A DNA stretch of 64,000 bases, from assembly GCA_905221615.1 (NCBI GenBank), contig CAJNDT010006011.1:1-64000 (forward strand), given 5' to 3'. Of this stretch, positions 20,001 through 51,600 are shown piece after piece. Source of the stretch: Symbiodinium sp. CCMP2592 (lineage: Eukaryota; Sar; Dinophyceae; Suessiales; Symbiodiniaceae). The position numbers and the translations under genes were made by a program. Under the pieces are notes generated by a model. The model worked only from the letters and a program-made list of their open reading frames with translations. It did no database searches and was not told where the DNA came from. Each line of letters starts with the position of its first letter. The first letter of the stretch is position 1.

Positions 20001-23000
20001 ACGAAAGCGAACTTTGCAACGCCTAGAGTGGAAGCGCGATCTACCTAAGCATCCCGGACAACGTGCCGTTTTGTTGTTTTCAAGCCATTCAGGCGCCGGT
20101 TGCGGCAACGGGATTGCTTTCCTCGGTAGGGCCACCCCTGGTAGGCTTTCATAATCAGGCTCATCAGGATTAGCCTCGGCGATAGTGGGTAACAAGTTCG
20201 ACGAGAACGTCACTGGGTAGGCCATCTTGAGAGCCCGGGCGACGCATCTTTTCATAGACCCATTTGAGAGTCTGATCATGCAGTGATGCCCTTGCCCACC
20301 AATCACGGGGCCGAGATAGGCACCAATGTCGTATCGACCATCAACTTGTGATGCAAGGTGTTCTGGGGGCTGAATGTACATGATGCAAGCGAAAGGAAAC
20401 AACAAGTGAGGCGTGTGACTCTCACCCAAAGCTCGCTGCAAAGGACTCAACAGTTGACCCTGTGACGTTCCGAACCGGTTGTGTGAAGCAGCCGCATGGC
20501 TGTGAAGCAATTCCATCGCTTCCTCATTTGCCAACAGTTTCAAACCACTCACACCCTTAGCATGAAGCTCGTTGGCCAAAGCTGTTTCTTTAAGCGTTCG
20601 GATCGCTCTCTCAGCTACCGGGGCGTGTCTGTTAGGCGAGGTTTTCGTAGAAACTGAACTCCCACCTGTAATCTCAACGACCTCGGCTGCCATAGCTGCT
20701 AAAAGCGGTTCCCCGTCGTGTACAACATGAACCTCTTTAAGGCCGAATGATTTGAGGAATCTGACTAGCTTCCCCACGGTGACTTTTCGGTTATCTCCCA
20801 CACAAGTCGCAGCTGTCCCTATACAATATGTCGGTACGTGCACCACAGCGATCAAACGGATGCCTCGATACCAGTATTGATCCATCTGCACCTCAAGTGG
20901 GTCGACACTTTTGCGTGTTCGGGCGGGTGAGAGCCCTTTAGATCTTACACAGCTAGGACAGCCACCCCAATAGGGGGTATGACCCTGACGTTGGTGGCGC
21001 AATCTAGCTTCGGCACCGATGTTTTCGGGGAGAGCTTCTTCAGGGTCTACCGGGGGTTTGGTGTTGTTCGGGGTGGTTCTCTCTAACCCTTCACAGTCAT
21101 CACCATCATCATCAAAAAGCTGCTCTAGCTCTTCAACACCAATGGCACCACCCACATCACCTGAATCAAGCAATGGGCAACCGACCGACATGCACGCTGA
21201 ACTACCTACTGGCACGCAGGCTGCACGACCTACCTGCAAGCAAGCTAGACTACCTACCGGAACACAAGCTGGGCAACCTACCTGCACGCAAGCTAGACTA
21301 CCTACCGGAACACAAGCTGGGCAACCTACCTGCACGCAAGCTGGACTACCTAGCTGAACACACGCTGGGCAACCTACCGGCAGCACTTCTCTGACAGCGG
21401 CACTCTGCAAAAGAACTTCACGAGCTCCCTCTTTTGGCTGCTGCTCAAGAGCGGCTAAAGTTACAGGTCGCTGTCGCTGCTGATTTCCTCGACCTCTTCG
21501 AGGTCCACAAGCGGAGGAGGCAAAGGTGCCGGTTTCGCTGCCGTTGCCAAACTGGTCGGCGGCGCCACTGGTATTTCCTCTGGCGTGGGCATCTCGATGG
21601 TATAGTGAACGCCCACTACTGCACGTGGCTTTGGCGCATGCTTGGATGCCGGCATCATCTTCTTTGGTGTAGGCCTTAGTGTGGCTGCCGGCGGCATGAA
21701 CAACGGCCTCGATGTTGGAACTGGCGCCCGGAGAGAAGGCGCTGCTGTTGGCGTTGGCATCGGCGCTGAACTCGGCGCCACTGGTACTGTACTCGGCCTC
21801 GGTGTTGTGGTCGGTCGGGCCGGATAGGGCCTGTAGCGGTAATCCATGGGGATCTGCGGGGGCACGTGCATCTGCATGGGCACCGGAATCTGCATAGGAA
21901 CCTGCATCTGCATTGTTACTGGCACCGACCTTTGAACTGGAACTCGAGGAGGCTCCGGCGTATTCTCCATCAACGGTGGCGCCGGCGGTGGCGCCGGTGG
22001 TCTCGGGGCCTTCCCCTTCTGCTTTGAGGCTGCTGCTTTTGCAAGGGACGCTCTGTGGGCGAAGGTCGCGGCACCCTCCGTGTCCATGAAGCCGAGGCGC
22101 ACTCCTTCTATGGCCGAAAAAGGCATGTGCCTCGTAGGCACCACAGGATCCACCGTCACCACCGGAGGTGTTGCTGTTGCCACCGGCGTTCCCACAGGGG
22201 CCGGCGATGTGACAGGAGCCGGCGTTGCCACAGGACCCGGCGATGTCATAGGAGCCGGCGTTGCCAAAGGAGCCGGCGATGTCATAGGAACCGGCGTTGC
22301 CAAAGGAGCCGGCGATGTCATAGGAGCCGGCGTTGCCAAAGGAGCCGGCGTTGTTGTAGTCGCGCCCTTCGGCGGCTTTGGAATCGCTGCCTTCGGACCC
22401 TTCGGCGGCTTTGGAACCGCTGCTTTCGGAACCTTTGGAGCGGCAGCCTTCGGAGCGGCCCTCGGTGGAGGTGGTGCTGTCCAGATGTTGGGCGGCGCTG
22501 GCGCGGCCTTTGGCGGACTCTTTGGCGGGCTCTTTGGCGGTGTGGTTGGCCCCTTTGGTGGTGTAATCGGAGACTTCGGTGGTGTGGCTGGCCCCTTTGG
22601 AGGCGTACTTGGCACCATAGCTGTTGAGCCTGGGGCCTTCGGTGGAGTCACAGGCTGCTGTGCCCCACGTACTTGGGACAACACTCCCTGCCTCCTTTCG
22701 CTGGCTCGCTGCCTGAACAGGGCTAGATCCGCAATTTTTCCCTGCATAACGACACTCTGGGAGCTGGCTGCGGGCGCACCCGAGCCAGGAGCAATGTTGG
22801 AGGCTGTGGTGCTCGACGTTGGTCTCCACTTGCCCCAACACTCGTCCTCGTCCGTCTCCTCCTCCTGTGCTTCCACGATCATAGGGGCCGTGCTCGGCTC
22901 CGGCACGGGAGGCATAGGAGTCGTATGCGGCTCTGGCATGGGTGGCTTGAGAGGAGCCACCTTCCCACGCCATGCGTACACAGGAGTAGTCACGACCGGG

Positions 23001-25967
23001 CTGTCCGGAGAGTCTTGCCTGGCCAGTGCCCTGGCACCAGCCTTCGTAAGAGCGCCGCGGGGAGAAGCCTCCGATCCTGGCAGAATCAACGGACTCGGCG
23101 GCTCCACCGGGCTGTCTTCGAAAAGGCTCGCAAAACTCATCGGCGGACTCTCTTCCACCTCTGCTGTCGGCAAGTCCGGCTCTGTGAGGTGAGGAGACAA
23201 TTCCGGGGAAGAGACCGGAGTCGGCAGCGCCACGTCGTTGGAGAGCTCCGTCTGCTCCGCCGGCAACCTTTGAACCCGGAAGGTCGAGTTCTCCATGTCC
23301 TGGTCCATCTCGTGGTCGGACCCAGCCATCGTCCCTTACAGGTTCTACTGGGCCTTCAGAGCAAGAGTGGGCTAGGTGAGACGAAGCGACCGACCGACCA
23401 ACACGCGCTCCTACGGTTTCAAGCCCTACTCCTACACCTACAGGGTGAGACGGGACAACAGAACTCACGCTTCCCTTCTCAACCGACTGCACGGAACCAT
23501 CAGTAGAATCAGGCTCAACGTAGGTACAAGCTTTCAGCCACGACGTGTTGGCATACAATTCTGTCTCAAAGCGCAGACCACCCGGAGGATAGGCAACATG
23601 TAACTGAGGATCATAGTCATAATGAAAGATCCTAAAGCCTAAAGACTGCAAAATGCCTGAGCTAAGGATGCTTATCGAATTGGGGGCAATATACGCCTCC
23701 AGCTGCACTCGAATCTCTCTGTAAGCTTGGGTTCCAGAGGGCCCCTCTTCGAAACAAGGGAACCAAAGCTCTAGCAACCCATACCTAGTTATCTCCATAG
23801 TCTGGTCGTTGGCGACACTTACAAAGAGAGGCTCAACCTCAAGCTCTCGGATCAGCTTCGCAGTCACTCCAAGCATGTCTTGGGAAACAAGGTGAACACT
23901 CCCACCGCTATCAATCAAGAGATACGAGGGGTCGTCCCTAGTGACTGCAGGAAGTGCCAAAGTTGGAAAAGCAAGGCACTCTGAAGACCGAGCACGAAGC
24001 TGAGGCTGCGGCGCGGAAGCAAGGCTCAAAGCAATCACTGCTACGGCTACGCAAGCACACGTGAAACATGACTGCCGTGGGCTACTCAAGCATGCAACCA
24101 ACCGACAAATCAAGCATCCTACCATGCAAAACATGAAAAACATGAAAATCAAGGCAGTCATGGTGAAAAACTGTCCCTTCTCAGGCATTGCTTCAGAAAT
24201 CTGCCCTGCCGCGGGCAACAATGACGACATAAGGAGGGCCGCCTTGCCAATCTTCCCGGCACCCTTTGGAGCAGTGGGAGCTGGCGCAGCAGTCGAGGGA
24301 GGTGCAGGAGGGGCCACCTTGGGAGCGGCACTCTCTGTTGCCGCCGCTGCTGTCGCAGCAGCCTTCTCATCGGCAATCCTCTTCCGGCACTCGTTGGCCC
24401 AATGGCCCGGCTTGTGGCAGTAATTGCAAGTGCCCGGCTTCTTCTTTCCAGGAGCCGGCGTTGCAGATCGTGGCCTTCCGCCCTTCTTGCCATCTTTGCC
24501 TTTGTCCTTTCCCTTTCCTCCTTTGTCTTTGCCCTTGCCTTTATCACCATGCTTGCCTTGGCCTTTTCCATGACCTTTTCCTTTGGGCTCGCCACCCTTG
24601 GGCTCACCCTTCTCAGAACGATCAGCACCAAAAGCTGCAAAGCCCTTGGCGTTCGAGGCTTCCTTGTGAAAGTTCAAAACACGAAGCTGCTCATCATAGA
24701 AAACCAAACCGCGCTCAAGCTGCTCCAACGTTGTCAAAGACCCATGTAACAAAAGGTACTTCTTGCAATCATCATGAAGGTGCTTCAAGATGCAGCTGAT
24801 AACATCAGCCTGCTGCAGTTCAAGGTCTGGGTACTTGTTGGCAACGAGCGTGCGGTAGCGAGCAAAATCAGAAATCATATGGCGAAAAATATCCAATGGC
24901 CGTCTCAAGTGCTTTGGTGGCGCGATCAAGAGAGCCTGCTCTCTGAGCGCCTGTCCCTCCACACGAGACCTAACAGACAGTTCTTTGTTCAACTCACGCC
25001 AGAGGTCGTACCCTGCAGCGGCACCGCCTTGACTCAACTCGACAAGCTTGGCTATGTCAACTCCTCGCTGAAAACCAGCGAGAGCCTGCTTCAAGAGGTA
25101 CCACAGCTTAGTGGAACGAGCGGCCTTCCCCTTTGAGAGGCTGATCTGCTGAACCTGAACACCGCTCTCCACAGCCTCTTGCAGTTCCTCCGCGTAGCGG
25201 TCGTCTAAAAGACACAGCCAGGAGGTCAGTTCTTCGCGGTAAGCGGTCCACGTGGAGATTTCCTCATGGCGCGATCTCATCTTGTCTGCTGCCAACTTTG
25301 GCAGGGACGGAATGTAGTTTTCCGCCCTGTTGCTGCGCAAGCCTGTGTCCACATCCATCTTCACAACACCATCAGAGTCAACTCTGATGGCACCCAGGCT
25401 TCCAAGAGCTTCAGCGGGCGTCCCTTGGGACGAACTTGCAGCAACAGGAGCTGCACTTGCGGCCGAACTTGCAGCGTTTGCACTCGCAACGGCGAGCGTC
25501 TTCACCATCTCGGTGAGCTGCGAAATCTGGCCCTGCTGAGCTCGGATCTGTTCATCCTGGGCTTGCAACATCTGCCTGAAAAGGTTGACAGTGTTGTCTT
25601 CTGGACTAGGCACAGTTGCCTGCTGCGGAATCCCTCCTCCGTGAGGGAAAGCTGGTTGCGTTCCAAACTGAGGCTGCTGCTGCTGCTGAAAACCCTGCTG
25701 CAACGGAACTTGCTGAGGCACCTGTGCAAAAGGCACCTGAGGCACTTGACCTGCACTCACAAGAGGTCTGGGTCTACTCACAGGCCGGTGTGCTGTCGGA
25801 CTGTTCCGAGCAGGGAGGGACCTTCCACGAGTCCGCGAGCCAGGTGCACTCAACTCTTGAGGGGTTGAGGGAAAGCCAGAAGAAACTCCACTAGCACGAC
25901 TAGCACTTCGCCCTGAACTCCGTCCTCTTGGGGAACGGTCGCGGCTAGGCTCGGCTCGTGGGTCCAT
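17085..25967 (-). CDS. Element 1 Gag-Pol polyprotein with C-terminal methyltransferase-like domain
   Basis: The first ATG (25967) is 33 bases after the PBS and gives 2960 residues. Order with rough positions: RS/Gln-rich Gag start; capsid-like helical part (220-430); GKGKGK basic tract; CCHC knuckle CNYCHKPGHWANEC (512); two hydrophobic segments (598-625, 630-650); protease LLIDSGGSVH (683); biased stretch (880-1500, see overlapping ORF); integrase HHCC in H-X4-H-X6-C-X2-C form (1655) and core D, D, E (1695, 1747, 1780); reverse transcriptase with VYVDDILL (2358); RNase H with SDANWAS and SSAESEL (2548-2640); and a last domain with VEFCTSGEAW (2747), STPCTGGSPW (2810), EWPQRC (2860) and CPGNHEHSK (2925). 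Membrane segments between knuckle and protease are unusual for copia. All other catalytic motifs look intact. Confidence 0.92.
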   Translation of the reverse strand: MDPRAEPSRDRSPRGRSSGRSASRASGVSSGFPSTPQELSAPGSRTRGRSLPARNSPTAHRPVSRPRPLVSAGQVPQVPFAQVPQQVPLQQGFQQQQQPQFGTQPAFPHGGGIPQQATVPSPEDNTVNLFRQMLQAQDEQIRAQQGQISQLTEMVKTLAVASANAASSAASAAPVAASSSQGTPAEALGSLGAIRVDSDGVVKMDVDTGLRSNRAENYIPSLPKLAADKMRSRHEEISTWTAYREELTSWLCLLDDRYAEELQEAVESGVQVQQISLSKGKAARSTKLWYLLKQALAGFQRGVDIAKLVELSQGGAAAGYDLWRELNKELSVRSRVEGQALREQALLIAPPKHLRRPLDIFRHMISDFARYRTLVANKYPDLELQQADVISCILKHLHDDCKKYLLLHGSLTTLEQLERGLVFYDEQLRVLNFHKEASNAKGFAAFGADRSEKGEPKGGEPKGKGHGKGQGKHGDKGKGKDKGGKGKDKGKDGKKGGRPRSATPAPGKKKPGTCNYCHKPGHWANECRKRIADEKAAATAAAATESAAPKVAPPAPPSTAAPAPTAPKGAGKIGKAALLMSSLLPAAGQISEAMPEKGQFFTMTALIFMFFMFCMVGCLICRLVACLSSPRQSCFTCACVAVAVIALSLASAPQPQLRARSSECLAFPTLALPAVTRDDPSYLLIDSGGSVHLVSQDMLGVTAKLIRELEVEPLFVSVANDQTMEITRYGLLELWFPCFEEGPSGTQAYREIRVQLEAYIAPNSISILSSGILQSLGFRIFHYDYDPQLHVAYPPGGLRFETELYANTSWLKACTYVEPDSTDGSVQSVEKGSVSSVVPSHPVGVGVGLETVGARVGRSVASSHLAHSCSEGPVEPVRDDGWVRPRDGPGHGELDLPGSKVAGGADGALQRRGAADSGLFPGIVSSPHRAGLADSRGGRESADEFCEPFRRQPGGAAESVDSARIGGFSPRRSYEGWCQGTGQARLSGQPGRDYSCVRMAWEGGSSQATHARAAYDSYASRAGAEHGPYDRGSTGGGDGRGRVLGQVETNVEHHSLQHCSWLGCARSQLPECRYAGKNCGSSPVQAASQRKEAGSVVPSTWGTAACDSTEGPRLNSYGAKYASKGASHTTEVSDYTTKGANHTAKEPAKESAKGRASAAQHLDSTTSTEGRSEGCRSKGSESSGSKAAEGSEGSDSKAAEGRDYNNAGSFGNAGSYDIAGSFGNAGSYDIAGSFGNAGSYDIAGSCGNAGSCHIAGPCGNAGGNSNTSGGDGGSCGAYEAHAFFGHRRSAPRLHGHGGCRDLRPQSVPCKSSSLKAEGEGPETTGATAGATVDGEYAGASSSSSSKVGASNNADAGSYADSGAHADARAPADPHGLPLQALSGPTDHNTEAEYSTSGAEFSADANANSSAFSPGASSNIEAVVHAAGSHTKAYTKEDDAGIQACAKATCSSGRSLYHRDAHARGNTSGAADQFGNGSETGTFASSACGPRRGRGNQQRQRPVTLAALEQQPKEGAREVLLQSAAVREVLPVGCPACVQLGSPACVQVGCPACVPVGSLACVQVGCPACVPVGSLACLQVGRAACVPVGSSACMSVGCPLLDSGDVGGAIGVEELEQLFDDDGDDCEGLERTTPNNTKPPVDPEEALPENIGAEARLRHQRQGHTPYWGGCPSCVRSKGLSPARTRKSVDPLEVQMDQYWYRGIRLIAVVHVPTYCIGTAATCVGDNRKVTVGKLVRFLKSFGLKEVHVVHDGEPLLAAMAAEVVEITGGSSVSTKTSPNRHAPVAERAIRTLKETALANELHAKGVSGLKLLANEEAMELLHSHAAASHNRFGTSQGQLLSPLQRALGESHTPHLLFPFACIMYIQPPEHLASQVDGRYDIGAYLGPVIGGQGHHCMIRLSNGSMKRCVARALKMAYPVTFSSNLLPTIAEANPDEPDYESLPGVALPRKAIPLPQPAPEWLENNKTARCPGCLGRSRFHSRRCKVRFRDYIRDTLGDLDNPEQQQAPEKPQVKINPNPEVVEFEEESLDYEPSLPGSPVPEDLQHLVPEPSQAAQDSELPQEYLPGGDVEMDQVDMDDYTVPMDVAQVPDVLDSASMPQFMFSVIPDQKHHLSPVDYGEVGLFAAQLKRKAPAQHSNPDEGVAMPFGDREVWVIKPTSVVDDVSGLPLDPEKTWVGMQKEVSAMHNLGVGNARTYDEIKTHCQETGAKIIKSRFVFTDKVDVDDQHIVRARLVAKDFAFNQPSALDLGIASQTASVEAFKAFICRVVQDTLVLWGLDVSTAFLYAKLVLDTVLELPGCFQNLDGSKVYVILEKAIYGLRSAGLSWQKHLAGLLAELGLFPSLIEPTLYKGYWGDILVLCLVYVDDILLATRTKEANQQLLDFLMGRLKVKLTGRLDEDGRIGFLGREIIKRGHEILLAVKKEYVDSIFEAFGWSQENRRKMKPCTAPPDLRSILDKEDPEKPSEELSPEAASRFRSTLGKLGWLVQTRGDLCYFHSMLSRGQACPRAVHEDCMRKVLRWLLEVPDLVQVFQKDSKAQPGTATLVGFSDANWASERSTGRKSTSGGVIYLNGNCIKTYSRLQPIVALSSAESELFAMVEMARELVGLGQLLGHLFESVAQPLYLPTDSSSARQVSMMSGFLRRMRHVDLRLCYLQDKVENGEILVTHVPGTDNVADLQTKNLSVAQTWYHIGQLCLEERLTRSDYLRGDAPPVRCLVFAAFKGLFSASVDDPWSVLVGRCRLQTPHYIVMVEFCTSGEAWLTKLASHYGIHAIPVTEETDGTLPETIELIEHALRAAHRRNMHVVVWASTPCTGGSPWQRYHQARSADHYDERMKGLFTVHRKLWKSFLKLVNTSDSATWVIEWPQRCAYWGWSFTKSFLKINPHETALVHGCACGMVGMDALPVKKVWRLCSNSHVLIHCMDKLKCPGNHEHSKMFVLKNTQHYPEAFAHTALRALSAW
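21175..21380. repeat. 48-bp tandem repeat inside element 1
   Basis: Units reading ACTACCTACCGGAACACAAG then CTGGGCAACCTACCTGCACG repeat about four times. In the polyprotein frame they encode VGCPACVPVGSLACVQ, a Cys-rich repeat with two cysteines per 8 residues. They lie just downstream of the overlapping ORF. Confidence 0.85.
21461..23329 (-). CDS. Overlapping +1-frame ORF in element 1 (622 codons)
   Basis: It starts with ATG at 23329 and ends with TGA after …VEEISSDSDL. It lies wholly inside the polyprotein ORF, offset by +1, between protease and integrase. The N-terminus is acidic (MAGSDHEMDQDMENSTFRVQ); an ECWGKWRP motif lies near residue 166; the middle is rich in Pro/Ala/Thr/Lys (PPKSP and TPAPMTSPAP repeats); then comes an ordered-looking patch (AIEGVRLGFMDTEGAATFAH), a Met/Gln/Pro part and an acidic end. 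In the polyprotein frame the same bases give Gly/Ser/Ala/Asn repeats with little protein character. A similar ORF sits at the same place and in the same frame in elements 2, 3 and 4. Function unknown; expression unproven. Confidence 0.6.
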   Translation of the reverse strand: MAGSDHEMDQDMENSTFRVQRLPAEQTELSNDVALPTPVSSPELSPHLTEPDLPTAEVEESPPMSFASLFEDSPVEPPSPLILPGSEASPRGALTKAGARALARQDSPDSPVVTTPVYAWRGKVAPLKPPMPEPHTTPMPPVPEPSTAPMIVEAQEEETDEDECWGKWRPTSSTTASNIAPGSGAPAASSQSVVMQGKIADLALFRQRASERRQGVLSQVRGAQQPVTPPKAPGSTAMVPSTPPKGPATPPKSPITPPKGPTTPPKSPPKSPPKAAPAPPNIWTAPPPPRAAPKAAAPKVPKAAVPKPPKGPKAAIPKPPKGATTTTPAPLATPAPMTSPAPLATPVPMTSPAPLATPAPMTSPGPVATPAPVTSPAPVGTPVATATPPVVTVDPVVPTRHMPFSAIEGVRLGFMDTEGAATFAHRASLAKAAASKQKGKAPRPPAPPPAPPLMENTPEPPRVPVQRSVPVTMQMQVPMQIPVPMQMHVPPQIPMDYRYRPYPARPTTTPRPSTVPVAPSSAPMPTPTAAPSLRAPVPTSRPLFMPPAATLRPTPKKMMPASKHAPKPRAVVGVHYTIEMPTPEEIPVAPPTSLATAAKPAPLPPPLVDLEEVEEISSDSDL

Positions 25968-28642: not shown

Positions 28643-29007
28643 CGTTAAAAACCTACAAGGCGAACAGCCCTTCAGGTTTGAGGCAAACAAGTTCCAAGCA
28701 CCCTTGCAAGCAAAGCAAGCTCACAAAACACTCGGACAGTTCACACTTTCAGCACGCACAGCTCACTGCTGGTCTCACGTGTCTTGAGCCAAACGACAGT
28801 AGTCGTGGCACCTCTTAAAAGCTCCCAAGCACTACAAAACAAGGGAAAACAGGTTGAGGCTACCGCAAAACCGTCACGCAAGCTCAAACTACGTTCTACA
28901 GGCACTGACCACCTGAAACTAGCAAAAACTGTACAACTATACAGGTACCGAGGAAAACTCTGTGTCGCACCTAAAAACACTACTGGGCAGAGCACTGGTT
29001 TTCTACA
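28643..29007 (-). repeat. Element 2 3' LTR
   Basis: It begins TGTAGAAAACC after a G-rich polypurine tract and ends …GGTTTTTAACG. TTTGGCTCAAG on the minus strand is at 28783-28793, 140 bases before the LTR end. The 3' accessory ORF ends inside it, at 28980. Confidence 0.95.
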
Positions 29008-38069: not shown

Positions 38070-38074
38070 CAGGG

Positions 38075-44600: not shown

Positions 44601-47600
44601 CAAACCACGCCAATTGAAAGGCTGAGACGCCAACATCTTCCAGTAACGAAGACGTTTCCTTTTGGGTGCAAGGGTTTTGCCAAACCTGCGAAGCAGAAGC
44701 CTGAGAATCGAGGCCGCCGCCTCATCCCGTGTATGTACCTAGGGCCTGCTAAGCCAAATGGTGGAGGAGTGCGTGTGCTCCCTCTTGATCGGCCTGATGA
44801 GGTCGAAGTGATGTCGGCCTTTCGGCCGGACCAGCCTTACCTGTATCCTGAGGAGTTGGTGGTACAAGCCGCTGATTCGGGTGCCCCTTCTAGGCAAGAC
44901 AACGTTTTAGAGCGTCCTGTTTCCTTAGACCTGAAGCCCCCCGAAGCCTTTCAGCCTGGAGAGCCTAAGGGTAATCTAGTTGAGAGGGGGAGTGCGGAGC
45001 CGGAGGCTCCAGCTGAGCTCTTGGAGGATGAGCTTATGGACTATGATCCTTCTCCAGTTGAGGAGGAAGAGGTACTCCCTGAAGGTCCCCCTGCAGGAGA
45101 GAACGAGGCCCCACCTTTGTACGATGTGGACATGCAGCCGGCCGACGATGATGATCCCATGGAGGTGGCGATCAGCTGGCTGGAGGACCATGCTTTGTAC
45201 TCCATGTGTTCTAGACCTGAGGTTGTGTTCGCGGCAAAGGACGCTAAAGGGTCTAGGGCGGCCAAGTTGGAGTTTACTTTGAAGTTTGGAGGGTCCAAGG
45301 TGAAGGTTGAGGTTCCTTCTGGGGCTGCTGATGAGTATACTGGGGAGGTTCTTGAGGAGAAGAAACTTGGGGAAGGGATGCGTCTTGAAATGGAGGAACT
45401 GGACCACTTTGGTGTGTGCCAGGTTGTGTCTGAGAAGGAGGCGTTTCGCCTTGTGCGGGAAGCTAAGAGGAGAGTGCTTTCCACCAGGTGGGTGTTGCAC
45501 TACAAGGACGGGCACAAGCGTGTGCGCTGCCGTTTGGTTGTGCGTGACTTTAAAGGGCCCACCTCTGCTTTAGCTGATGGCATCTATTCTCCTACTACTA
45601 CCTTAGAGTCTGTGAGGTGTCTGTTGGGGATGTATGCGCATTTCGGAGGGAAGGTGATTTCGGGAGATATTTCTGTGGCCTTCATGCAGGCTAAGCTGTT
45701 TTCTACTGAGGTGGTGAAGCTGCCGGAGAACTGTAGGACAGTGTCAGGTGAACGTGTGCATTGTCTGCTGAAGCGTGCCATGAATGGTTTGCGGATTGGG
45801 CCTTTGGCTTGGTTTCGTGAGCTAGGAGAAACACTGAGAAAACTTGGTTTCTTTGTTACTGCCGACAGCACTGTGTATCGCAAGGTGATCAAGGAGAAAG
45901 GCAAGGATGCCATTGTGTTGGTGTTGGCCTATGTAGATGACATCTTGGTTTTCAGCACGGTTGCGAGTGTAGCTGAGAAAGTGTTTGAGGAACTGAGTAA
46001 AGTGTTCAAGATGAAGCGCACGGGAACGCTTCAACCGGGAGAGAAATCGGTGATCTCCTTCCTTGGGAGAAACATTTATCAGAGGAAGACCGGAGACTTG
46101 TACTTCGGACTCAAACCCGGGATGCTCCATAGCTGTGCGGAAGAGTATCAAATCACGAAGGGAGCGAAACTCCCCAAGCTTGAGCGTTTGTGGACCAGTC
46201 TGGAATCCACCCCGATCACGCATGAGGCCTATCAGCGCTACCGGCGCGTGTTGGGCAAACTGTCGTGGCTAGCTTTGACAAGAGCTGATTTGCAGTTTGT
46301 TGTAGGTTTTCTGGCCCGGAGCCAGAGCAACCCAGACTCCAGAAGTGAAGCGTGTATTCGAGCTGTGCTGCGTTGGATTCTCACGCTTGGGAATCGGGTT
46401 CAGCGGATCCCGGCACAGTGGGTGAACTATCGCCCTTCGGAAAGTACGCGTGTGATCGATTGTTTCTGTGATGCTAGCTGGAATTTGCCCTCTGTGAGTG
46501 GGGCGATTATCTGCTGGCAGTGCAACCTGCTGAAGAGTTTTAGCCGTAAACAGACGGTTGTGGCCCTGAGCAGTGCCGAGGCTGAATTGAGTGCTTTGGT
46601 AGAGACTGTGAAAGAGGCTTTGTTTGCAGGGTTGCTTCAACAGTCGTTTTTGGAGGGATTGCCTGAGGATGATACCGGAAGCTTTTGGATCCGGATTTGT
46701 ACCGATTCTGAGTCGGCAAAGGCGATTGCTTCAATGGAGGGACTCTTGAGAAGGGTTCGTCACCTGGAGTTGCGGTGTGCTTTCCTGCAGCAGATGGTTC
46801 AGTCGGGGAGAGTGATCCTCGAGTTTGTGGCCGGAGCATATAATGCCTCCGACGGCCTGACCAAGAGTATGGTCTTTCAGGAGCAGCTGGACAACCTCTA
46901 CGAGGTAACCGGTTTGGTTTCTTTTGAAGACGAGTTGGGTGAGTTTGAGCTGGAACGCCTGACTGCAGAAGAGCCGGTAAACCGTTCTTTTGTTCCTGAG
47001 GAGTACGTTTCACTGTGTGAAGCTGTGGCGAAGAACCAGGTCACCTTTGTGGTCGTTGAACTGTTCTGCCAGGAAGAAAGTGCCTTACAGAAGGCATGTG
47101 AGAAGCTTGAGATTCCCTATGTGGGTGTCACTGAAAAGCTTGACTTTTGTTCTGAGCAGACGCAGTGTTTTCTGAAGGAGTTGTTTTCTGTGTTGAGTTG
47201 TGGCTTGAAGACGAAGATCTACTGCCATATCTCCACTCCCTGTACCACTGGGTGTCGTTTGCGTTACCGCGGGTGGCGCAAGTACAGTCAAGAGAAGTGG
47301 GAAGAGAAGAAGAAGTTGCATCAGCGTGCTTGGGAACTTCTTGAAGGTTTGTTGAAACCGGTTGCTCGGAGTGAACGCTTGTTGTTGACTCAAGAGTGGC
47401 CTCTGCAGAACGACCTCTGGAAGGACCCGCGGTATCTTCAGGTTGCTTCAGAATTGGGGCTTTCTGAGGGTATTGTGGTAGACCGCTGTGCGTACGACTG
47501 TGTGTTTAAACGGTGGTACTTTGCCACGAACAGTAAACGCTGGGTCAAAGTGTTTCCTAAACGGGAATGTGACCAAGTGCATGAACATGTACAGGTGGAA

Positions 47601-47699
47601 TTAAAAGATTCAGGGTTCTATCCTGAAAAGCTAGGTCTAGAGCTTGTAAAGTGTGCTCAAAAGACACTAGGTGCCGCATCAGTCCAAGAGGGGGTGTGA
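38604..47699 (+). CDS. Element 3 Gag-Pol polyprotein with C-terminal methyltransferase-like domain
   Basis: The ATG 44 bases after the PBS gives 3031 residues. Order: Pro/Ala-rich Gag start; Gln-rich coil (95-145); helical capsid-like part (200-410); CCHC CWYCEKKGHYQEEC (451); Lys/Gly tract; protease WLVDSGATSH (589); a hydrophobic segment MMISVVSLWCMACVGVLCSL (828-848) followed by a 32-residue Cys-bearing duplication (ECACEVSGLGF / ECACKVSGPGF); biased stretch (950-1510); SKAPRA repeats (1640-1680); integrase H-X4-H-X6-C-X2-C (1811), core near 1850, MDNEA (1906) and Glu (1945); reverse transcriptase AYVDDILVF (2442); RNase H CDASWN (2622), SSAEAEL; and the extra domain with VVELFCQEES (2816), STPCTTGC (2877), EWPLQN (2931) and CDQVHEHV (2990). 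The last domain is the most diverged of the four. Translation ends in the LTR. Confidence 0.93.
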   Translation: MASPLPGGSSETPAQNVPVPEEGMDFDLFGPGPVGPVGPVNSPVGSPTAQQAAAAAPASGSATVPEGVSGPAVAPAAPAQCPVPPNPALGGEQLQQLMLQMLNNQNTALQQQQNQMNFLMQAQSAQLTLLNRRLDEEEARRKADEDRRKVSSDPFAAAVAASSSGAAPTAPTGSLVAPPSGPAASSGSFSSFGGRAEKYLPPLPLINAGEMKQGRIRELEEFHRFLEVLSSWLALTDDAFVGELRQCLFVAGEIQQVTLPSDTAGRSARLFYLLQQALAKWDRGLEILRSVSTRQSNAAAGYEGVRELYRQYSVNSRMEAVYIRDEMLKLHTKTAALKRPLEVVRFLEDEISKGDKKLVRFPDLCLNAADRSAILLQAVSVQAREYLVLHGKTGSWTEMAESLRFYEEQLRMVELPSGGLRGLKGDKGGKDGKGAKGGKAGGAKDKSQIVCWYCEKKGHYQEECRQRIADEKKQGKGDKSNKPKGKGQGDKDKGKGKEKGKGKHGKDKGKDKKTKKQHARAVADGEAEEEPEGETVMALRASGELIPVDARGGVLRTTPSTPEVPAAAHRVTVEHRVCLVGIESQDSYWLVDSGATSHCMSVSCFEKYEVLRTYDFKPTLSNASNDMIEVLKVCDVRVRFGKLVVVLEHCLITNLDFNVLSPFVAWQRGWHTMLTNTPHIFNKKNKKRIRLTVKDRAWYAVAALKDSGDKMEVDALKPSSSPKATEKPETTKPPKATEKPETAKPPKATKAQKAQKAQEQRSLESVKSLEYTPFKFLLRSLRTHGGSAVSVCEGAALESLERCELDRFGCGSRSGKKDSEAQPSWTAGSMMISVVSLWCMACVGVLCSLWTLVSECACEVSGLGFLQDLRGGSLRRLQGSAVRVVRECACKVSGPGFCQDLQGGSLRRLRGSAVSVASSVQGGFKWRLQGCARVVHRSLVLKLLFFTLLVVCDGASTKEAARAPGILDGRGTKVVAGGYYVAEGGGPNRHEVCCVCPTIRCGDGRSGDRKHGSRRERAANDGGARRAHQNFSRVAQNGRAFTAKIATAEIAAAVKAGGRRGGRRLGQMAPRVWCGHGRCRGPGCCREICRESAQAQEEAGISCDKGSHEGLEEGPWCGKEGHEGLEGGCSRRGSRGGPCGPYFSESTFVCRAHLEEEGPEARAEARAEASGWWSSDDGLQSPADAGGADGEEGREGQAACEKEAALPCCSEGQGACRRCPGMGAKPFGRKIRRTAGPGAGAGCSGPPCGSGDCGNHGRCPRSCSCTCEEKAEEEEGRCRSGCGRRCRSGCGSRGRGCGGKGGTSCCRGGGADDTGALRSTWKASFGSKAKDSDQAGCDLEAGRYCDSGWATAAQSDSGWATAAQSETVQIAGQSFSLAAKAFEKSRASGTGDPWSGSCFGASEGDASEAGGASEDGACEGYAGLASASSANSAAAAVAAPAVGVPRIVFAGTAAASGIPQIAFAASPADRSKEQGTDPPNTTGTRWFVWPSRPRVNATWTRLQEALPLCLYLRPTVRPTAGCKKIRFKRKWKRSSARVGCFECGECPGVLGRKGEVLRLQRYRVLRVFGKGFASECEAQNPMEAWRPSAVLQVFCEGFVRKAQALLKALGPSVRVCLPGYAQEAPRAQAPKTSKVTEAPRVSKAPKVPEAPKASKAPRASKAPRAPPKQAPRASKAPRASEAVECFVLVGVRRLRSLCCCGLERVRGLWLCCACGWDDLRSEPLKVKGGCDEKVSEPPHRLCMMRGLPVEVTISDEELIPDGDPPRQAEPAQASAPAPVGEAESAAEDAGDISEEEELHVPLEDKEYQEHVARGHQPYLPSCSLCVSSRGVIPARRRKDPSIPQASFLSDFLFFTKDLRVCIVVHELSGYCFAVPYPTGGDPGHVARCINAELAAAGIQGQHVVLRMDNEASLISLWNKVGKDRSYPGLSLHIDAVPKGRPQSKGLVEVGVRHLKEAFWVNWLTLETTLEKKLRLGGLLYKEALRYVARTRNLHATSKSQTTPIERLRRQHLPVTKTFPFGCKGFAKPAKQKPENRGRRLIPCMYLGPAKPNGGGVRVLPLDRPDEVEVMSAFRPDQPYLYPEELVVQAADSGAPSRQDNVLERPVSLDLKPPEAFQPGEPKGNLVERGSAEPEAPAELLEDELMDYDPSPVEEEEVLPEGPPAGENEAPPLYDVDMQPADDDDPMEVAISWLEDHALYSMCSRPEVVFAAKDAKGSRAAKLEFTLKFGGSKVKVEVPSGAADEYTGEVLEEKKLGEGMRLEMEELDHFGVCQVVSEKEAFRLVREAKRRVLSTRWVLHYKDGHKRVRCRLVVRDFKGPTSALADGIYSPTTTLESVRCLLGMYAHFGGKVISGDISVAFMQAKLFSTEVVKLPENCRTVSGERVHCLLKRAMNGLRIGPLAWFRELGETLRKLGFFVTADSTVYRKVIKEKGKDAIVLVLAYVDDILVFSTVASVAEKVFEELSKVFKMKRTGTLQPGEKSVISFLGRNIYQRKTGDLYFGLKPGMLHSCAEEYQITKGAKLPKLERLWTSLESTPITHEAYQRYRRVLGKLSWLALTRADLQFVVGFLARSQSNPDSRSEACIRAVLRWILTLGNRVQRIPAQWVNYRPSESTRVIDCFCDASWNLPSVSGAIICWQCNLLKSFSRKQTVVALSSAEAELSALVETVKEALFAGLLQQSFLEGLPEDDTGSFWIRICTDSESAKAIASMEGLLRRVRHLELRCAFLQQMVQSGRVILEFVAGAYNASDGLTKSMVFQEQLDNLYEVTGLVSFEDELGEFELERLTAEEPVNRSFVPEEYVSLCEAVAKNQVTFVVVELFCQEESALQKACEKLEIPYVGVTEKLDFCSEQTQCFLKELFSVLSCGLKTKIYCHISTPCTTGCRLRYRGWRKYSQEKWEEKKKLHQRAWELLEGLLKPVARSERLLLTQEWPLQNDLWKDPRYLQVASELGLSEGIVVDRCAYDCVFKRWYFATNSKRWVKVFPKRECDQVHEHVQVELKDSGFYPEKLGLELVKCAQKTLGAASVQEGV
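41461..43140 (+). CDS. Overlapping +1-frame ORF in element 3 (559 codons)
   Basis: The ATG at 41461 opens MGRRRKKQPEPQVSSTDEEQ; it ends RRSRSVSI-stop. It is +1 relative to the polyprotein, between protease and integrase, like those in the other elements. It carries an N-terminal helix (VADLTAMKSAASARRSD), a Glu run followed by GWGKWRPESG (about residue 112-121), Lys/Ala helices (KEATKALKKVRGAAKK), a Pro/Val-rich part with two IPDGPPPPKV repeats and a basic Ser/Arg end. The WGKWRP motif is shared with the element 1 ORF. The polyprotein frame here reads as Gly/Ala/Cys/Arg-rich low complexity. Confidence 0.6.
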   Translation: MGRRRKKQPEPQVSSTDEEQRSSQAAIMSQRVADLTAMKSAASARRSDVVTVAAVIESTAREERERQMMEEHDELTKISREWHKMAVPSQPKSPQQKSPLPSKLEEEEEEEGWGKWRPESGVATDVAEAPDAAEKSVEKVPKRKKKRASRATKEATKALKKVRGAAKKATKALKEAAADEEAEADPVDPTFPNPHLYVAPTSKKKARRPERRPERKPADGGPVTMGYNRQLMQVVRTEKKVVKAKRLVRKKQHSRAVAKGKALAEGALEWVQSRLDERSEGRPAQEPEQGAVDLLVAVGTAETTVDAQEAVPVPAKKKRKKKKAAVEAVVDAAAEAVVEAAAEAVVEKVAPAAAEEEVPMTPAPSDPRGKPRLAPKPKTATRPAVTLKPAVIVIPDGPPPPKVIPDGPPPPKVKPSRSPAKVSPSPPKPSKRAVPAAPETPGVDPALVPVKAMPVRPVAPPKMVPVKAMPALPAPAAPTVPLPPLPPPPLGYQGSFLLGPQPPLGYHRSLLLQAPPTDPKSKAPIRPTQRVLGGSYGPPDQGSTQHGRGSKRRSRSVSI

Positions 47700-47929
47700 A
47701 AATCCCATTTGACCTTGGATGTCCTGATGTTTTCGGCATGCCTGAAGCTGTGAGGAGTGCTTTTGAGTTAGGAAGTGACTGCACGTTCGTTTCGTCTCGT
47801 TTCGTTAGTGCTTGAAGTGTTTTGCTTGGAGACAGACAGCTGCAAGGTGTTTCACTGTCAGTCAGAGCCCGACGCGACTCCGCTTTGGCTCAAGAAAAAG
47901 ACCGAGTGCTGCGCGCTCTGTTTTTCACA
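47695..47929 (+). repeat. Element 3 3' LTR
   Basis: Same 235 bp, preceded by the polypurine tract AAGAGGGGG (47686-47694). TTTGGCTCAAG is at 47884-47894. The pol stop TGA is 47697-47699, inside the LTR. Confidence 0.97.
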
Positions 47930-48042
47930 CTTCTTCTCCTGTTGTTTGGTGATTGTTGGTGTTCGAACCCCGTTCGAACTCTGGGGGGAATTATAGAACC
48001 CGGTTCATTTGTTCGCACCTTTAGCATTCTCGTAGGAGACTT
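47930..48042. repeat. Right foldback arm, piece 2
   Basis: Reverse complement of about 27955-28055 (TTCATTTGTTCGC, CATTCTCGTAGG). It begins with the element 3 TSD and stops where the truncated element 4 LTR begins. Confidence 0.85.
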
Positions 48043-48376
48043 CATCAAGGATGAGCCTGCAGTTTGAAAGGATCCTCAAGGGAATCTTTGTGAAGTGCTT
48101 GAAGTGGTTAGCAGAAGCACTAGTGTCTCTGAGGGGCCTGAGTTGGTTGTGCGAGTTTGGTTGCAAGCTGTAGTTCAGAAGTTTGCTGCAGTGAAAGTGT
48201 GACCGAACTGCTTGGCTCAAGCGCGAGTGTGAAAAGAAGTCCAAGTGCAACGCTTCGCTTTGCAGTTTGTCCTGAGCCACTTCGTGAAGTTTGTTTTCCG
48301 ACTGGGAGAGCTTCGTAAGCTTTTGGTTGCAACTTCAAGGTTTTGAACTTGGTTGTGACGGTCCCGAAGTTTTTCG
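48043..48376 (+). repeat. Element 4 5' LTR remnant
   Basis: Homology with the 3' LTR starts at CAAGGATGAG and ends at GAAGTTTTTCG before the PBS. TTGGCTCAAG is at 48212-48221, 155 bases before the end. Confidence 0.85.
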
Positions 48377-48454: not shown

Positions 48455-48628
48455 ATGAGAAGACCAGTGTCTCTGCCAGCCGGTGGGGATGACTCTTCGT
48501 TGTCCAGCTTGGGTGGTGGAAGTCGTGGAAGGAACCGCAGTCCTCCCAGAAGGCCTGCTGACTTGCCTCTGCAGACTCGAGGTCGTTCGCCTTCAAAGGG
48601 CTCGTGCTTCTTCGAGGGCGCCTTCTAG
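48455..48628 (+). CDS. Probable Gag N-terminus of element 4, out of frame with the polyprotein
   Basis: The ATG at 48455 starts MRRPVSLPAGGDDSSLSSLG and continues GRNRSPPRRPADLPLQ, a sensible Arg/Ser-rich Gag start, then stops at TAG 48626-48628. The main frame is +1 to it and becomes Gag-like from about 48600 (RASSRAPSRTSVPQRAP). One missing or extra base near 48600 would unite them. Confidence 0.55.
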   Translation: MRRPVSLPAGGDDSSLSSLGGGSRGRNRSPPRRPADLPLQTRGRSPSKGSCFFEGAF

Positions 48629-51600
48629 GACCTCAGTCCCGCAGAGAGCGCCTACGCCTACCCCGAGTGCGTTTGGTTCACCTACGGCACCACAGCAAGT
48701 GCAACAGCAAGCAACGAGTTCTGGAAGTGCGCCGCAGGCGCAACCTGTGACGCAGTCTCCTGCGCCAACCTCTGGAGCTTTTACTGCTGACGCGGCCTTG
48801 AGTGTGATCCAGGCCCAGTCGAGCCAGATCCAAGCACAGTCTGTTCAGATCAGCGAGTTGATGCAGATTGTGAAGGGTCTTGGAAGACTTCAAGAGCAAA
48901 CTTTGGCTGCAGCTAGCCCTAAGGCTGCAGAAGAGAAGAGTGGTGAAGAGCCTGCTCCAATGGAGGTCGACAAAGACACCGGAGGAGTGAGGCACAACAA
49001 AGCAGAGCAGTACTTGCCAAAGATTCCCATGTTGAACTTTGAGAAGATGGTTTCGCGGTCCAGCGAGATCAACTACTGGACCGAGTTTGTTGAGGGAATC
49101 AGTTCTTGGCTTGCGTTGTTGGACGACTTCTACCCCGTCGAGCTTTACAGGGCGAGCATCACTGAAGAGGTGGTGCGTCAAGACACCTTGGAGAAGGGAC
49201 CAGCTGCGAGAAGCGCAAGGTTCCACAACTTGTTGAAGCAGAGTTTGGGAACGTTCCAGCGTGGACTGGATATCGTTCGCCAGGCAGAGCAGCAGCAGTT
49301 GGGGTCAGCTTGTGGGTACGAGGCCTTCAGAAAGCTGAACCTGGAGTTCGGGATACAGTCCCGGATGGAAGCGAGTGCGATTAGAGAGTCTGTCCTGAAC
49401 TACCGTCCCGGAAAACATCTGCAGCGCCCTTTGGACATTTATCGGGCGGTCGAAGCAGAGCTCTTGAGAACAGACAGGAATTTGAGTTCCTATCCGTCTG
49501 TGCGCCTATCGGAAGCTGAGAAGGTGATGCTCCACTTCAAGTGCATGCCGGAGAACTGCAAGCACTACGTTCTCTTGCACGGGAAGAGTGAGACTCTTGA
49601 GCAGGTCCTTGCGTCGATCAAGTTTTATGACTCCCACCTTCGGCTCATCGGGTATGAGAAGGAGACTGGGAAGGCCGCTTGGACTGAAGAGATGGTGGCT
49701 GCCTTCGAGAAGGGCAAAGGAAAAGGAAAGAAAGGAAAAGGAAAGGAGAAAGGAAAAGACAAAGGCAAGAGCACGAGCCCAGACAAGAAGGGAAAAGGAA
49801 AAGGTGAGAAGGGAAGGTCGCAGTCTGCTTCGCCTACCAAGGGGAAGTGCTTCAACTGCGGTGAGAAGGGGCACTTTGCTCGAGACTGTCCCAAGCCGCG
49901 GAAGAACGAGAATGGTGACGACAAGGCCTCTGCGAAGGCCAAAGCAAAGAGCGCAGCAGCAAAGAGTACAGCGACGACGCCGCAAGTGACGATGACGTTT
50001 TTGGTTGGAGCTTTGGAGCCGCAGCCCGGCCCTTTCCAAGCGCGTGGTCGAGAAGGTTTTCTTTCACAAGGGCATGGTCACGGTGATTTTCCTGAACAGC
50101 GGCATGATCGAGATCTTTTTCATGAAGAATGGCATGTTTCGGGAGATTTTTTACAACAGCACGAAGGGCATGGTCGTTTTGCACAACAGCATGGTCACGT
50201 TGCAGAACAGCATGGTCACGTTGCAGAACAGCATGGCCACGTTGCAGAACAGCATGGTCACGTTGCAGAACAGCATGGTCACGTTGCAGAACAGCAAGAA
50301 CATGGTCAGCTAGCAGCTTTGCGTGGTCACGTTCGCTTTGCAGAAGACACAGGGCATGAGAACGTTGAGCGTGGTCAGTTGTTTCCACAGCATGTTGTCG
50401 AGCAGGTGAACAGCATTGGAGCCTCCACGTTTTCTTTTGAAGAGCAGTGTGCTTGGTTGATAGACTCTGGAGCTTCATGTCACTTGATCGGGGAGGGCAT
50501 GCTAGATGGTGGCCACGTCGAGGTCCTGGAGGAGCGTCCGGTGAGTGTTGAGTGCAGCCTTGCTTCCGGAGAGCCAATAGTTTTGCGTAGGAGAGTTTCC
50601 GTGAGAGCCTGCTTTATCACTGATGTAGAGGGGCTCGTTTGCGCTACTTTGAGTGCTCTCGTTGCGCCAAGCTGCAACCACGCAATCCTCTCTACCGGCC
50701 AAATGGCTCAGAGGGGCTGGCAGGTGTCGATCTGTGCTTCAGGTGTTGTGGTGTCCTTAAGTAACGGCAACCAAGAAGTGAAGCTAGGAACGACAGTTTA
50801 CAGCAACGTTGGCTGGTGCTACAGCATTCCCACAAAGAGCTACAGAAGGGCCTTCTCTGCTGAGATCTCGCTCCCGGGCGATGGACGTGGACTGGGGAAC
50901 GAACTCCGAGGCGGAGGCCGAGGAGGGGATCCCCAGGGCGATGGACTTCGCGAACTACCTCACTGGGGTGGTGAGGGGGACGCTGAGCATCGGGACTTGG
51001 TCGCGGGTGACTACGCCGAAGTCGACCTCGTCGTCGAGCCAGTCAACCTCGCCGCCGGAGGATGTGAGGGAGCCGGGCGGGACACCAATGGTGGAGGAGG
51101 CGACGCCGTTTCCTCTGGATGTGGAGGAGATCGTCGCCCCGCAGGTCTCTGTCACGACAGAGGCACAGGGAGCTCAGGAGCTGGGCGAGGAGATCGCTGG
51201 TCCAGCTGTGAGCCTTACCGCGACGGTCGAGGAGCTCCCGAAGGTTCCAAGGCCGAAGAAAAGGCCTCAACTTCCGGTGTTACCATACCCGGCCACTTCT
51301 CTGACACCACAGGAGACAAGGGCAGAAGTGCAGCCGGTGGCAAAGGCAGCGGCTCTGGGGTGGGGCCTCCATGGCCTCAATCTTCCGAGGCCTCCTCCGG
51401 CGATCGTTTTGAGGCCAAGGTTGGTGGATCTCAATCCCCCGCCATCGCCGCCAGTGGGACCGCTGGTGGAGACGAGGCCGGGGAGACGTCTGCCGGAGCC
51501 GCCAGCAGTTCCGAGAAGGTCGAGGACACCGGTGAGGCGGAGGACCAGGCCGAGAGGATCACGGAGCCCGGCCTCGGAGAGCGATCTGGAGCTCCTGTAG

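What the first reader, a model, noticed from the sequence alone, without database searches (positions are those of the whole stretch)
21461..51600. Four copia elements each hide a +1-frame ORF at the same place inside the polyprotein gene
Seen: element 1 (23329-21461, 622 codons), element 2 (35113-33752, 453), element 3 (41461-43140, 559) and element 4 (50881-51600, 239). Each starts with ATG, lies between protease and integrase, is offset +1 to the polyprotein, and ends shortly before the integrase zinc motif. N-termini are charged (MAGSDHEMDQ, MRRSNRAPEESSSDSE, MGRRRKKQPEP, MDVDWGTNSEAEAEE). Three of the C-termini are acidic and the fourth is RSRSVSI. In this frame there are helix-like and ordered patches, while the polyprotein frame yields repeats of Gly, Ser, Arg or Asn. 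Inference: a conserved accessory gene overprinted on pol, with the polyprotein frame merely kept free of stops as a linker. Caution: GC-rich low-complexity DNA is often open in several frames.
Basis: partly seen in the sequence, partly recalled or inferred. Interest (0 to 1): 0.88.

Follow-up and report, generated by a model that had tools for sequence, protein, structure and literature searches.

The report
Hidden gene nested inside retrotransposon polyprotein
Four jumping genes, apparently from a dinoflagellate alga, each seem to carry a second gene written in another reading frame inside their main polyprotein gene; selection preserves the hidden protein (clearly in three of the four), while the main gene's own reading there is only kept free of stop signals.

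Summary
All four +1 ORFs are at the stated places. Relatives from the window's own 1.1-Gb genome decide the matter. In the E2 family, differences in the flanking pol domains fall on pol codon position 3 (pos 1:pos 3 = 5:49). Inside the ORF they fall on position 1, the ORF's wobble base (134:52; Fisher p = 3.5e-17). Two-frame counts give the ORF a dN/dS-like ratio of 0.33 and pol about 0.9, so the amino-acid constraint lies in the +1 frame. ORF-silent changes that would put a stop into pol are missing (E2-L017: 0 of 77, 6.9 expected). E3 shows the same. E4-type ORFs keep 41-50% amino-acid identity where the pol frame keeps 15-32%. E1 is weaker (0.60-0.85). Five of six loci fetched from further integrase groups also carry such an ORF; the sixth has no continuous pol frame. 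So this is a nested accessory gene of 239-622 codons in a pol spacer, comparable to HBV preS/S in the polymerase spacer. Expression, RNA route and function are unproven; no other species could be searched.

The parts
21461..23329 (-). E1 nested +1 ORF, 622 codons; Pro/Ala-rich, acidic tail DLEEVEEISSDSDL; motif WGKWRP
   Evidence: own-genome relatives (weaker constraint, ORF NN/SN 0.60-0.85)
33752..35113 (-). E2 nested +1 ORF, 453 codons; Lys/Ala/Glu-rich predicted helical stretch, basic (net +20), acidic tail
   Evidence: ORF NN/SN 0.24-0.49, pol frame unconstrained, stops avoided; model
41461..43140 (+). E3 nested +1 ORF, 559 codons; basic (net +35), motif WGKWRP, tail SKRRSRSVSI
   Evidence: ORF NN/SN 0.26-0.64
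50881..51600 (+). E4 nested +1 ORF, 239 codons; MDVDWG start, PVLPYP, WGLHGL, RSRTPVRRR motifs
   Evidence: 41-50% aa identity across families, pol frame 15-32%
17085..25967 (-). E1 pol ORF (gag, protease, linker, integrase, RT, RNase H, C-terminal domain), 2960 codons
   Evidence: RT by Pfam, the other domain names by eye and by comparison of the elements
29508..37145 (-). E2 pol ORF, 2545 codons, zinc knuckle and RVT_2
38604..47699 (+). E3 pol ORF, 3031 codons, RVT_2
48489..55625 (+). E4 pol ORF, 2378 codons, zinc knuckle and RVT_2
37705..38070 (-). E2 5' LTR (366 nt, identical to the 3' LTR)
28643..29008 (-). E2 3' LTR
38325..38559 (+). E3 5' LTR (235 nt, identical to the 3' LTR)
47695..47929 (+). 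E3 3' LTR
48039..48376 (+). E4 5' LTR (97% identical to the 3' LTR)
56319..56658 (+). E4 3' LTR
26170..26179 (-). 10-mer TTGGCTCAAG in the E1 leader (3' end of the dinoflagellate spliced leader, recalled)
   Evidence: kept in E1 relatives L076 and L080
37845..37854 (-). same 10-mer in the E2 5' LTR (also 28783-28792 in the 3' LTR)
   Evidence: one base off in L079, segment deleted in L078
38515..38524 (+). same 10-mer in the E3 5' LTR (also 47885-47894)
   Evidence: kept in L077
48212..48221 (+). same 10-mer in the E4 5' LTR (also 56493-56502)
   Evidence: kept in L074 and L075

Best explanation
Each element carries a true accessory protein gene wholly nested, in the +1 frame, in a spacer of pol between protease and integrase. 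SHOWN: the four ORFs; purifying selection on their amino acids in E2, E3 and the E4 group; no amino-acid constraint seen in the pol frame of the same bases; avoidance of stops in that pol frame; the same layout in eight element families of one genome. STRONGLY SUGGESTED: the gene starts at its own ATG, because in the E4 group the conserved protein begins there and the conserved protease end stops just before it. INFERRED: pol is translated straight through as one chain, so the hidden gene's other frame becomes a 240-620-residue unconstrained spacer. INFERRED: the ORF is made from a shorter mRNA, perhaps by spliced-leader trans-splicing of the element's RNA. INFERRED: the product is a mostly disordered, proline-rich, in E2 and E3 strongly basic protein that works in the nucleus or on nucleic acid (import, chromatin tethering or RNA handling). 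Of these inferences, own start codon about 80%, trans-spliced mRNA about 40%, nuclear or nucleic-acid role about 45%. The confidence given is for the nested gene itself.
For: E2 family, 12 disjoint pairs (24 of 28 rows): mismatches at pol positions 1/2/3 are 134/45/52 in the ORF, 3/8/20 before it and 2/12/29 after it; Fisher p = 3.5e-17 for ORF against flanks. Per-site rates by (ORF, pol) class: silent-in-ORF/changing-in-pol 0.029, changing-in-both 0.0097, changing-in-ORF/silent-in-pol 0.0107. Similar with CpG sites left out in 7 pairs. E2-L017: 77 ORF-silent differences, none makes a pol stop, 6.9 expected; seven other, not independent, pairs also 0. E3 family: ORF NN/SN 0.24-0.55 in 15 pairs, 6 of 6 rows intact in both frames. 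E4 group: ORF amino-acid identity 0.50/0.45/0.41 against 0.32/0.21/0.15 in the pol frame over the same columns. Protease end NVGWCYS(I/V)P is conserved in the pol frame and the conserved ORF protein starts 5-18 residues later. Second codon position lowest in G+C, as in the rest of pol, sits in the +1 frame in E2, E3 and E4. Further families: 5 of 6 fetched loci.
Against: E1 is weak: ORF NN/SN 0.60-0.85, and one pair (E1-L064, 28/20/24 at ORF positions 1/2/3) shows no wobble excess; with two frame-shifted copies included E1 pairs reach 1.16. The one pair of family d gives 0.91 on 34 differences, and family e 0.33-0.91. Distant E4 pairs give NN/SN 0.70-1.12, probably saturated. The pol ratio SN/SS is 0.39 pooled, which could hint at some pol constraint, but rests on 81 sites and 6 differences. 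17 of 28 E2-family rows are disrupted or truncated. No RNA, ribosome or peptide data exist here. A splice-acceptor test upstream of the window's four ATGs was not significant overall (0.036, 0.35, 0.67, 0.45). The four ORF proteins are mostly not alignable with one another and match no Pfam family at E up to 0.1. Only one genome could be searched, and the copies were chosen by me, mostly among those without stops.
Confidence: 0.88

Rival explanations
1. By-product: the linker is low-complexity, GC-rich DNA poor in the codons that make +1 stops, and the +1 frame is open by chance.
For: Shuffles of the linker's own codons give mean longest +1 stretches of 143-349 codons; E2 alone is not beyond the synonymous shuffle (P = 0.124), and some other frames of E1 and E2 are long too.
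Against: Substitutions are spaced on the ORF's codons and not on pol's; E4-type ORF proteins are 41-50% identical across families while the pol frame is 15-32%. Chance openness predicts neither.
Confidence: 0.04
2. The ORF is real but is made by +1 frameshifting at the end of protease, as a Gag-protease-ORF fusion, and not from its own ATG.
For: In all four E3-family copies with an open frame over 1,500 codons (L070-L073), the gag-protease frame is continuous with the ORF through an indel near 116 nt upstream. ORFs sit directly after protease.
Against: In E1 the +1 frame is open for only 3 codons before the ATG, in E2 17. In the E4 group the +1 frame before the ATG contains stops and the conserved ORF protein begins at the ATG (M[DE][VA]DWG). 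ATG is present in 26 of 28 E2-family rows. No search for slippery sites was made.
Confidence: 0.12
3. The constraint is on RNA (packaging signal or structure), not on a protein.
For: Overlap with an essential genomic RNA makes this possible in principle.
Against: The pattern has a period of three, in the ORF's register, and is explained by ORF synonymy; the register changes at the ORF's ends; CpG effects do not explain it. No RNA fold test was run.
Confidence: 0.02
4. Frame-switch relic: the linker was once read in the +1 frame by pol itself, and paired indels moved pol to another frame; the ORF is a fossil.
For: Base composition by codon position fits the +1 frame in three of four elements.
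Against: Selection on the ORF is visible between closely related copies; eight families share the same offset and a stop of their own, with an ATG.
Confidence: 0.03

Closest known systems
Hepatitis B virus preS/S gene inside the polymerase (P) spacer and RT
   Same: [quoted passage not shown]
   Different: Here it is an LTR retrotransposon, apparently of an alga; the gene lies only in the spacer and not over RT; and 453, 559 and 622 codons exceed the 400-aa S overlap that the paper calls the longest known of any animal virus. No sequence relation was tested and no envelope role is claimed.
Additional ORFs (aORFs) of plant LTR retrotransposons (Grande, RIRE2, Retand, env-like ORFs)
   Same: Conserved extra ORF of unknown or accessory function in many copies of a family.
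   Different: Those reviewed in PMC7264820 (part 1 of 3 read, plus a term search) most often lie between pol and the 3' LTR; the term 'overlap' does not occur in its main text. Here the ORF is inside pol, sense, fully overlapping.
Retroviral accessory genes in overlapping frames (tat, rev, vif; deltaretroviral overprinted genes)
   Same: Accessory proteins made from alternate frames, typically from spliced mRNAs (recalled; PMC3744397 seen only as a listing with the start of its abstract).
   Different: Those overlaps are, as recalled, mostly partial or with env; no homology found or tested.
DNMT-bearing retrotransposons of Symbiodinium (PMC5890265)
   Same: Dinoflagellate retroelements with added coding capacity (passages read).
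   Different: Those are LINE and DIRS elements with a methyltransferase; that paper says that Symbiodinium Copia lacks any DNMT domain.

Membership tests
Ty1/copia LTR retrotransposon | RVT_2-type reverse transcriptase | tested here: met
   PF07727 above cut-off in 4 of 4 pol ORFs
Ty1/copia LTR retrotransposon | Flanking LTRs | tested here: met
   3 of 4: E2 and E3 identical, E4 97%. For E1 no LTR pair was found by a flank comparison
Ty1/copia LTR retrotransposon | Integrase ahead of RT | tested here: inconclusive
   A conserved stretch that I read by eye as integrase (zinc-type motif, recalled) lies before RT in all four, but no Pfam integrase model matched at E 1e-3
Overlapping (nested) protein-coding gene | Second ORF longer than expected given the first frame | tested here: met
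   3 of 4 elements below 0.05 by synonymous shuffle, 4 of 4 by codon shuffle; 5 of 5 further loci whose pol frame is open through the linker, both shuffles
Overlapping (nested) protein-coding gene | Purifying selection on amino acids of the second frame | tested here: met
   E2, E3, E4 group; E1 weak, families d and e too few differences
Overlapping (nested) protein-coding gene | Translation of both frames | not testable with these tools
   no RNA, ribosome or peptide data
HBV-like polymerase-spacer overlap (works like) | Nested gene lies on a spacer dispensable in sequence | tested here: met
   E2 family: pol NN/NS 0.91 pooled, 0.96-1.84 in six deep pairs, yet stops avoided
HBV-like polymerase-spacer overlap (works like) | Nested product is an envelope protein | not tested
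   no transmembrane prediction run; Pfam finds nothing in the ORF proteins
Plant-type aORF | Located between pol and the 3' LTR | tested here: not met
   ORFs lie inside pol

The most novel reading that the evidence does not exclude
A whole clade of dinoflagellate copia elements lives with a large nested accessory gene in pol: ribosomes making Gag-Pol read 240-620 residues of functionless sequence through it, selected only for lacking stops, while the true product is made from its own trans-spliced mRNA cut from the same RNA, whose LTR mimics the spliced leader.
Probability: 0.35. Interest if true: 0.88.

Novelty: new variant of a known kind. Interest (0 to 1): 0.78.

Why it matters
Long nested genes are well known in compact viruses. 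Here one sits in large elements of a 1.1-Gb genome where space is not scarce, so genome compression is an unlikely reason. It gives a clean natural case of one frame kept for its amino acids and the other kept only open, which makes the origin and cost of overlapping genes measurable over many copies. It also means that annotation that takes one ORF per stretch would miss a constrained product of these elements, and it points to an unstudied accessory function in the class that PMC5890265 (passages) calls the most abundant retrotransposons of Symbiodinium genomes.

Tried and rejected
Protein-database search for relatives elsewhere could not be made (switched off). Three viral-contig scans found no relative. 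One genome-contig scan gave one weak RT-region hit in a MAG (L001), not used. So conservation outside this genome is untested.

Within-element tandem repeats were tried as a substitution record. Mismatches at ORF positions 1/2/3 were 78/37/40 in E1, 16/7/13 in E2, 6/2/10 in E3 and none in E4; pairs are not independent; not used.

Codon-usage scoring, leave-one-out, favours the +1 frame in total in E1-E3 and is level in E4; per-codon differences are small in E1 and E4. Kept as minor support only and not cited as evidence.

Splice-acceptor search upstream of the ATGs gave no significant excess. The ATG-free stretch upstream (171, 113, 340 and 178 nt; 10%, 22%, 2% and 6% of positions in the same pol ORF have as long a gap) is suggestive only, and in relatives L042, L045 and L050 it is only 69-71 nt. 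Single-sequence AlphaFold2 of the E2 ORF has mean pLDDT 60 and pTM 0.24; read only as helical and disordered stretches.

Shared motifs among the ORF families: E1 and E3 share WGKWRP and an IADL...RR stretch, in swapped order (hhalign E 3e-5 and 6e-4). E2 and E4 share NPPP...RRLPxPP (9e-4); the other four family pairs gave nothing. A WGGWKP in family d was seen by eye. Suggestive of common origin, not shown; low complexity may inflate these.


Full report
WHAT IS THERE. The window holds four copia-type elements, called here E1 (pol 25967-17085, minus strand), E2 (37145-29508, minus), E3 (38604-47699, plus) and E4 (48489-55625, plus). Each has one unbroken pol ORF of 2378-3031 codons with an RVT_2 reverse transcriptase in 4 of 4. 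E2 and E3 have identical LTRs and E4 has LTRs 97% alike, so they are young; no LTR pair was found for E1.

CHANCE. Conditional on the pol protein sequence, reshuffling synonymous codons in the protease-to-integrase linker gives as long a +1 stretch with P = 0.001, 0.124, 0.011 and 0.021 (E1-E4). Shuffling codons gives 0.001, 0.030, 0.001 and 0.020. Collapsing tandem repeats weakens this a little (0.002, 0.145, 0.022, 0.041 synonymous; 0.001, 0.065, 0.001, 0.024 codon). Other frames are mostly unremarkable, but not all: E2 +2 is at 0.044 (codon 0.008), one antisense frame of E1 at 0.005 or less, one antisense frame of E2 at 0.025, and a third-type antisense frame of E1 and E3 at 0.035 and 0.015 by the codon shuffle only. 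Turned round, the ORF's own codons in random order would put on average 6-22 stops into the pol frame; there are none. So openness alone points to constraint in both frames but does not say which proteins matter.

THE DECISIVE TEST. The window is part of a 1.098-Gb assembly (G000:C5149). A search with the E2 ORF gave 73 matches; 28 rows (E2 and 27 other copies) were aligned. Against E2, mismatches in the protease and integrase parts fall mainly on pol codon position 3, while inside the ORF they fall mainly on pol position 1, the ORF's third position. For 12 disjoint closest pairs (24 of 28 rows; L015, L028 and L029 dropped as partial, one row left unpaired, pairs at or below 0.4% divergence not used) the counts at pol positions 1/2/3 are 134/45/52 in the ORF, 3/8/20 in the 290 nt before and 2/12/29 in the 442 nt after. 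ORF against flanks, positions 1 and 3: Fisher p = 3.5e-17. These pairs include broken copies.

TWO-FRAME COUNTS. Each difference was classed as silent (S) or changing (N) in the ORF and in pol, per available site, with transitions weighted. Pooled E2 pairs: NN 0.0097, NS 0.0107, SN 0.0291 (first letter ORF). The ORF ratio NN/SN is 0.33 and the pol ratio NN/NS 0.91. Six deep pairs give 0.35-0.42 for the ORF and 0.96-1.84 for pol. A second pol ratio, SN/SS, is 0.39 pooled but rests on 81 sites and 6 differences. Leaving out CpG sites changed little in the seven pairs tried. Codon-aware alignments of intact copies give NN/SN 0.24-0.49 for the E2 family in 14 of 15 pairs (the other has none), 0.26-0.64 for E3 (15 pairs), 0.26-0.41 for the three close E4-type pairs printed and 0.60-0.85 for E1 (6 pairs). 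In this codon-aware set two frame-shifted E1 copies (L061, L062) were left out; with them E1 pairs reach 1.16. Pol NN/NS is 0.75-1.88 apart from two very small pairs (0 and 0.57).

POL IS KEPT OPEN, NOT KEPT. Between E2 and L017 there are 77 ORF-silent differences; by opportunity 6.9 should have made a stop in pol, and none did. E2-L019, E2-L014, L011-L017 and L007-L019 also show 0 against 5.8-6.8 expected; these pairs share sequences and are not independent. The pooled pairs, broken copies included, show 2.5 where the SN rate predicts about 12. E3-L065 shows 1 against 5.9 and L043-L045 0 against 4.7. E1 is uneven (0 of 4.0, 3 of 3.4, 2 of 6.3 and others), and distant E4 pairs show 1-3.5 against 6-9. 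So pol is selected to have no stop while its residues drift. This is best explained by translation through the region.

DEEPER COMPARISON. The E4 ORF search gave 36 matches and 30 loci. E4 itself (L031) and five of the other loci, chosen for intact ORFs, were compared. ORF proteins of two further families (L042, L043, L045; L049, L050) are 41-50% identical in amino acids to E4 and to each other, against 15-32% for the pol frame over the same columns. Conserved pieces include M[DE][VA]DWG at the start, PVLPYP, WGLHGL, [IL]N.PP and, at the end, RSR[ST]P. The protease end NVGWCYS(I/V)P is conserved in the pol frame and the ORF's conserved start follows 5-18 residues later; before the ATG the +1 frame has stops. 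This places the start of the protein at the ATG.

HOW WIDESPREAD. The E3 ORF search gave 78 matches (78 of 2665 candidates scored) and the E1 ORF search 129 rows (71 of 18925 candidates scored); many E3 and about twenty E1 copies are full-length or nearly so without stops in the ORF frame. To look beyond relatives of the four ORFs, the E4 integrase region was searched (141 matches) and six loci from three integrase groups not yet sampled were fetched. Five of six have a +1 stretch of 320-466 open codons at the same place (synonymous P 0.002-0.028, codon P 0.002); in two of these (L083, L084) pol is open through linker and integrase but not back into gag. The sixth, L085, has no continuous pol frame and says nothing. 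Family e (L081, L082, L086) gives ORF NN/SN 0.33-0.91 and the one family d pair 0.91, on few differences. In all, eight families show the layout (E1-E4, two E4-like, d and e); none with pol open through the linker was seen without it, but the sample is small and was chosen by me.

DEAD AND ODD COPIES. Of 28 E2-family rows, 11 are intact in both frames. Of the other 17, 9 have more stops in the pol frame, 5 more in the ORF frame (L013, L020, L021, L024, L027), 2 equal numbers and 1 is only truncated; after an indel the labels rotate. In E3-family copies L070-L073, all four with an open frame over 1,500 codons, the gag-protease frame runs on into the ORF through an indel near 116 nt upstream, so that the ORF ends that chain. 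Whether these copies are functional is unknown.

PRODUCT. The proteins are rich in Pro, Ala and charged residues. E3 has net charge +35, E2 +20, E1 +7 and E4 -2. No Pfam family matches the four ORFs (E up to 0.1) or four relatives (E up to 1). The E2 model is low in confidence, with a long helix at 68-176 and disorder elsewhere. A nuclear or nucleic-acid role is inferred from composition alone.

EXPRESSION. Not shown. All four leaders or LTRs carry TTGGCTCAAG, which equals the 3' end of the dinoflagellate spliced leader as I recall it. By base count about 0.12 such 10-mers are expected in both strands of 64 kb; seven are seen, all at these places. Relatives keep it in 5 of 7 fetched leaders; one differs by a base and one has lost the segment. 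Three more occur in the other loci, against about 0.5 expected; those were not looked at. This suggests that the element RNA is a substrate of leader trans-splicing, and hence a possible way to a shorter ORF mRNA. The search for an acceptor upstream of the ORFs was not significant.

HOST.

LITERATURE. PMC9093120 (passages) gives the HBV parallel. PMC7264820 (part 1 of 3 and a term search) reviews additional ORFs of plant LTR elements, most often between pol and the 3' LTR. PMC5890265 (passages) reports methyltransferases in Symbiodinium LINE and DIRS elements and says that Copia there lacks any. PMC3229502 and PMC6050394 were seen as passages for spliced-leader relicts. Nine searches bearing on such a gene (listings only, for the first 15 of 243) showed none; the library lacks most subscription journals, so this is not proof of novelty.

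VERDICT. It is a new variant of a known kind: a nested overlapping gene in the spacer of a reverse-transcribing element's polyprotein.

Noticed in passing
[not shown]
   Followed up: partly
26170-26179 (-), 37845-37854 (-), 28783-28792 (-), 38515-38524, 47885-47894, 48212-48221, 56493-56502: TTGGCTCAAG, the 3' end of the dinoflagellate spliced leader as recalled, in the LTR or leader of all four elements and 5 of 7 fetched relatives; perhaps the R-region boundary of a trans-spliced genomic RNA.
   Followed up: partly
L070-L073 (E3-family copies): Gag-protease frame continuous with the +1 ORF through an indel near 116 nt upstream of its ATG, leaving integrase-RT in another frame; all four copies with an open frame over 1,500 codons.
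   Followed up: partly
22086-23192 (+): Antisense ORF of 368 codons over the E1 linker; an antisense stretch of 418 codons there is longer than in shuffles (P at most 0.005). No comparative test made.
   Followed up: no
27206-27935 and 56661-57390: Inverted repeat of about 730 nt, 97% identical, on either side of the E2-E3-E4 block; nature unknown.
   Followed up: no
5164-5429: Near-perfect inverted repeat (126-nt arms, 14-nt loop, 98%), followed by a short-period repeat array.
   Followed up: no
12597-14885 (-): ORF of 762 codons with an endonuclease/exonuclease/phosphatase match just above its cut-off (PF03372, E 1.5e-5), perhaps part of a LINE.
   Followed up: no
L084, family d +1 ORF (1071-2471, -): The ORF holds a Cys/His-rich stretch (CEYCMVCGKHATEAHLMSDSHNHH) that looks like a zinc finger by eye; no Pfam match at E up to 1.
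   Followed up: partly
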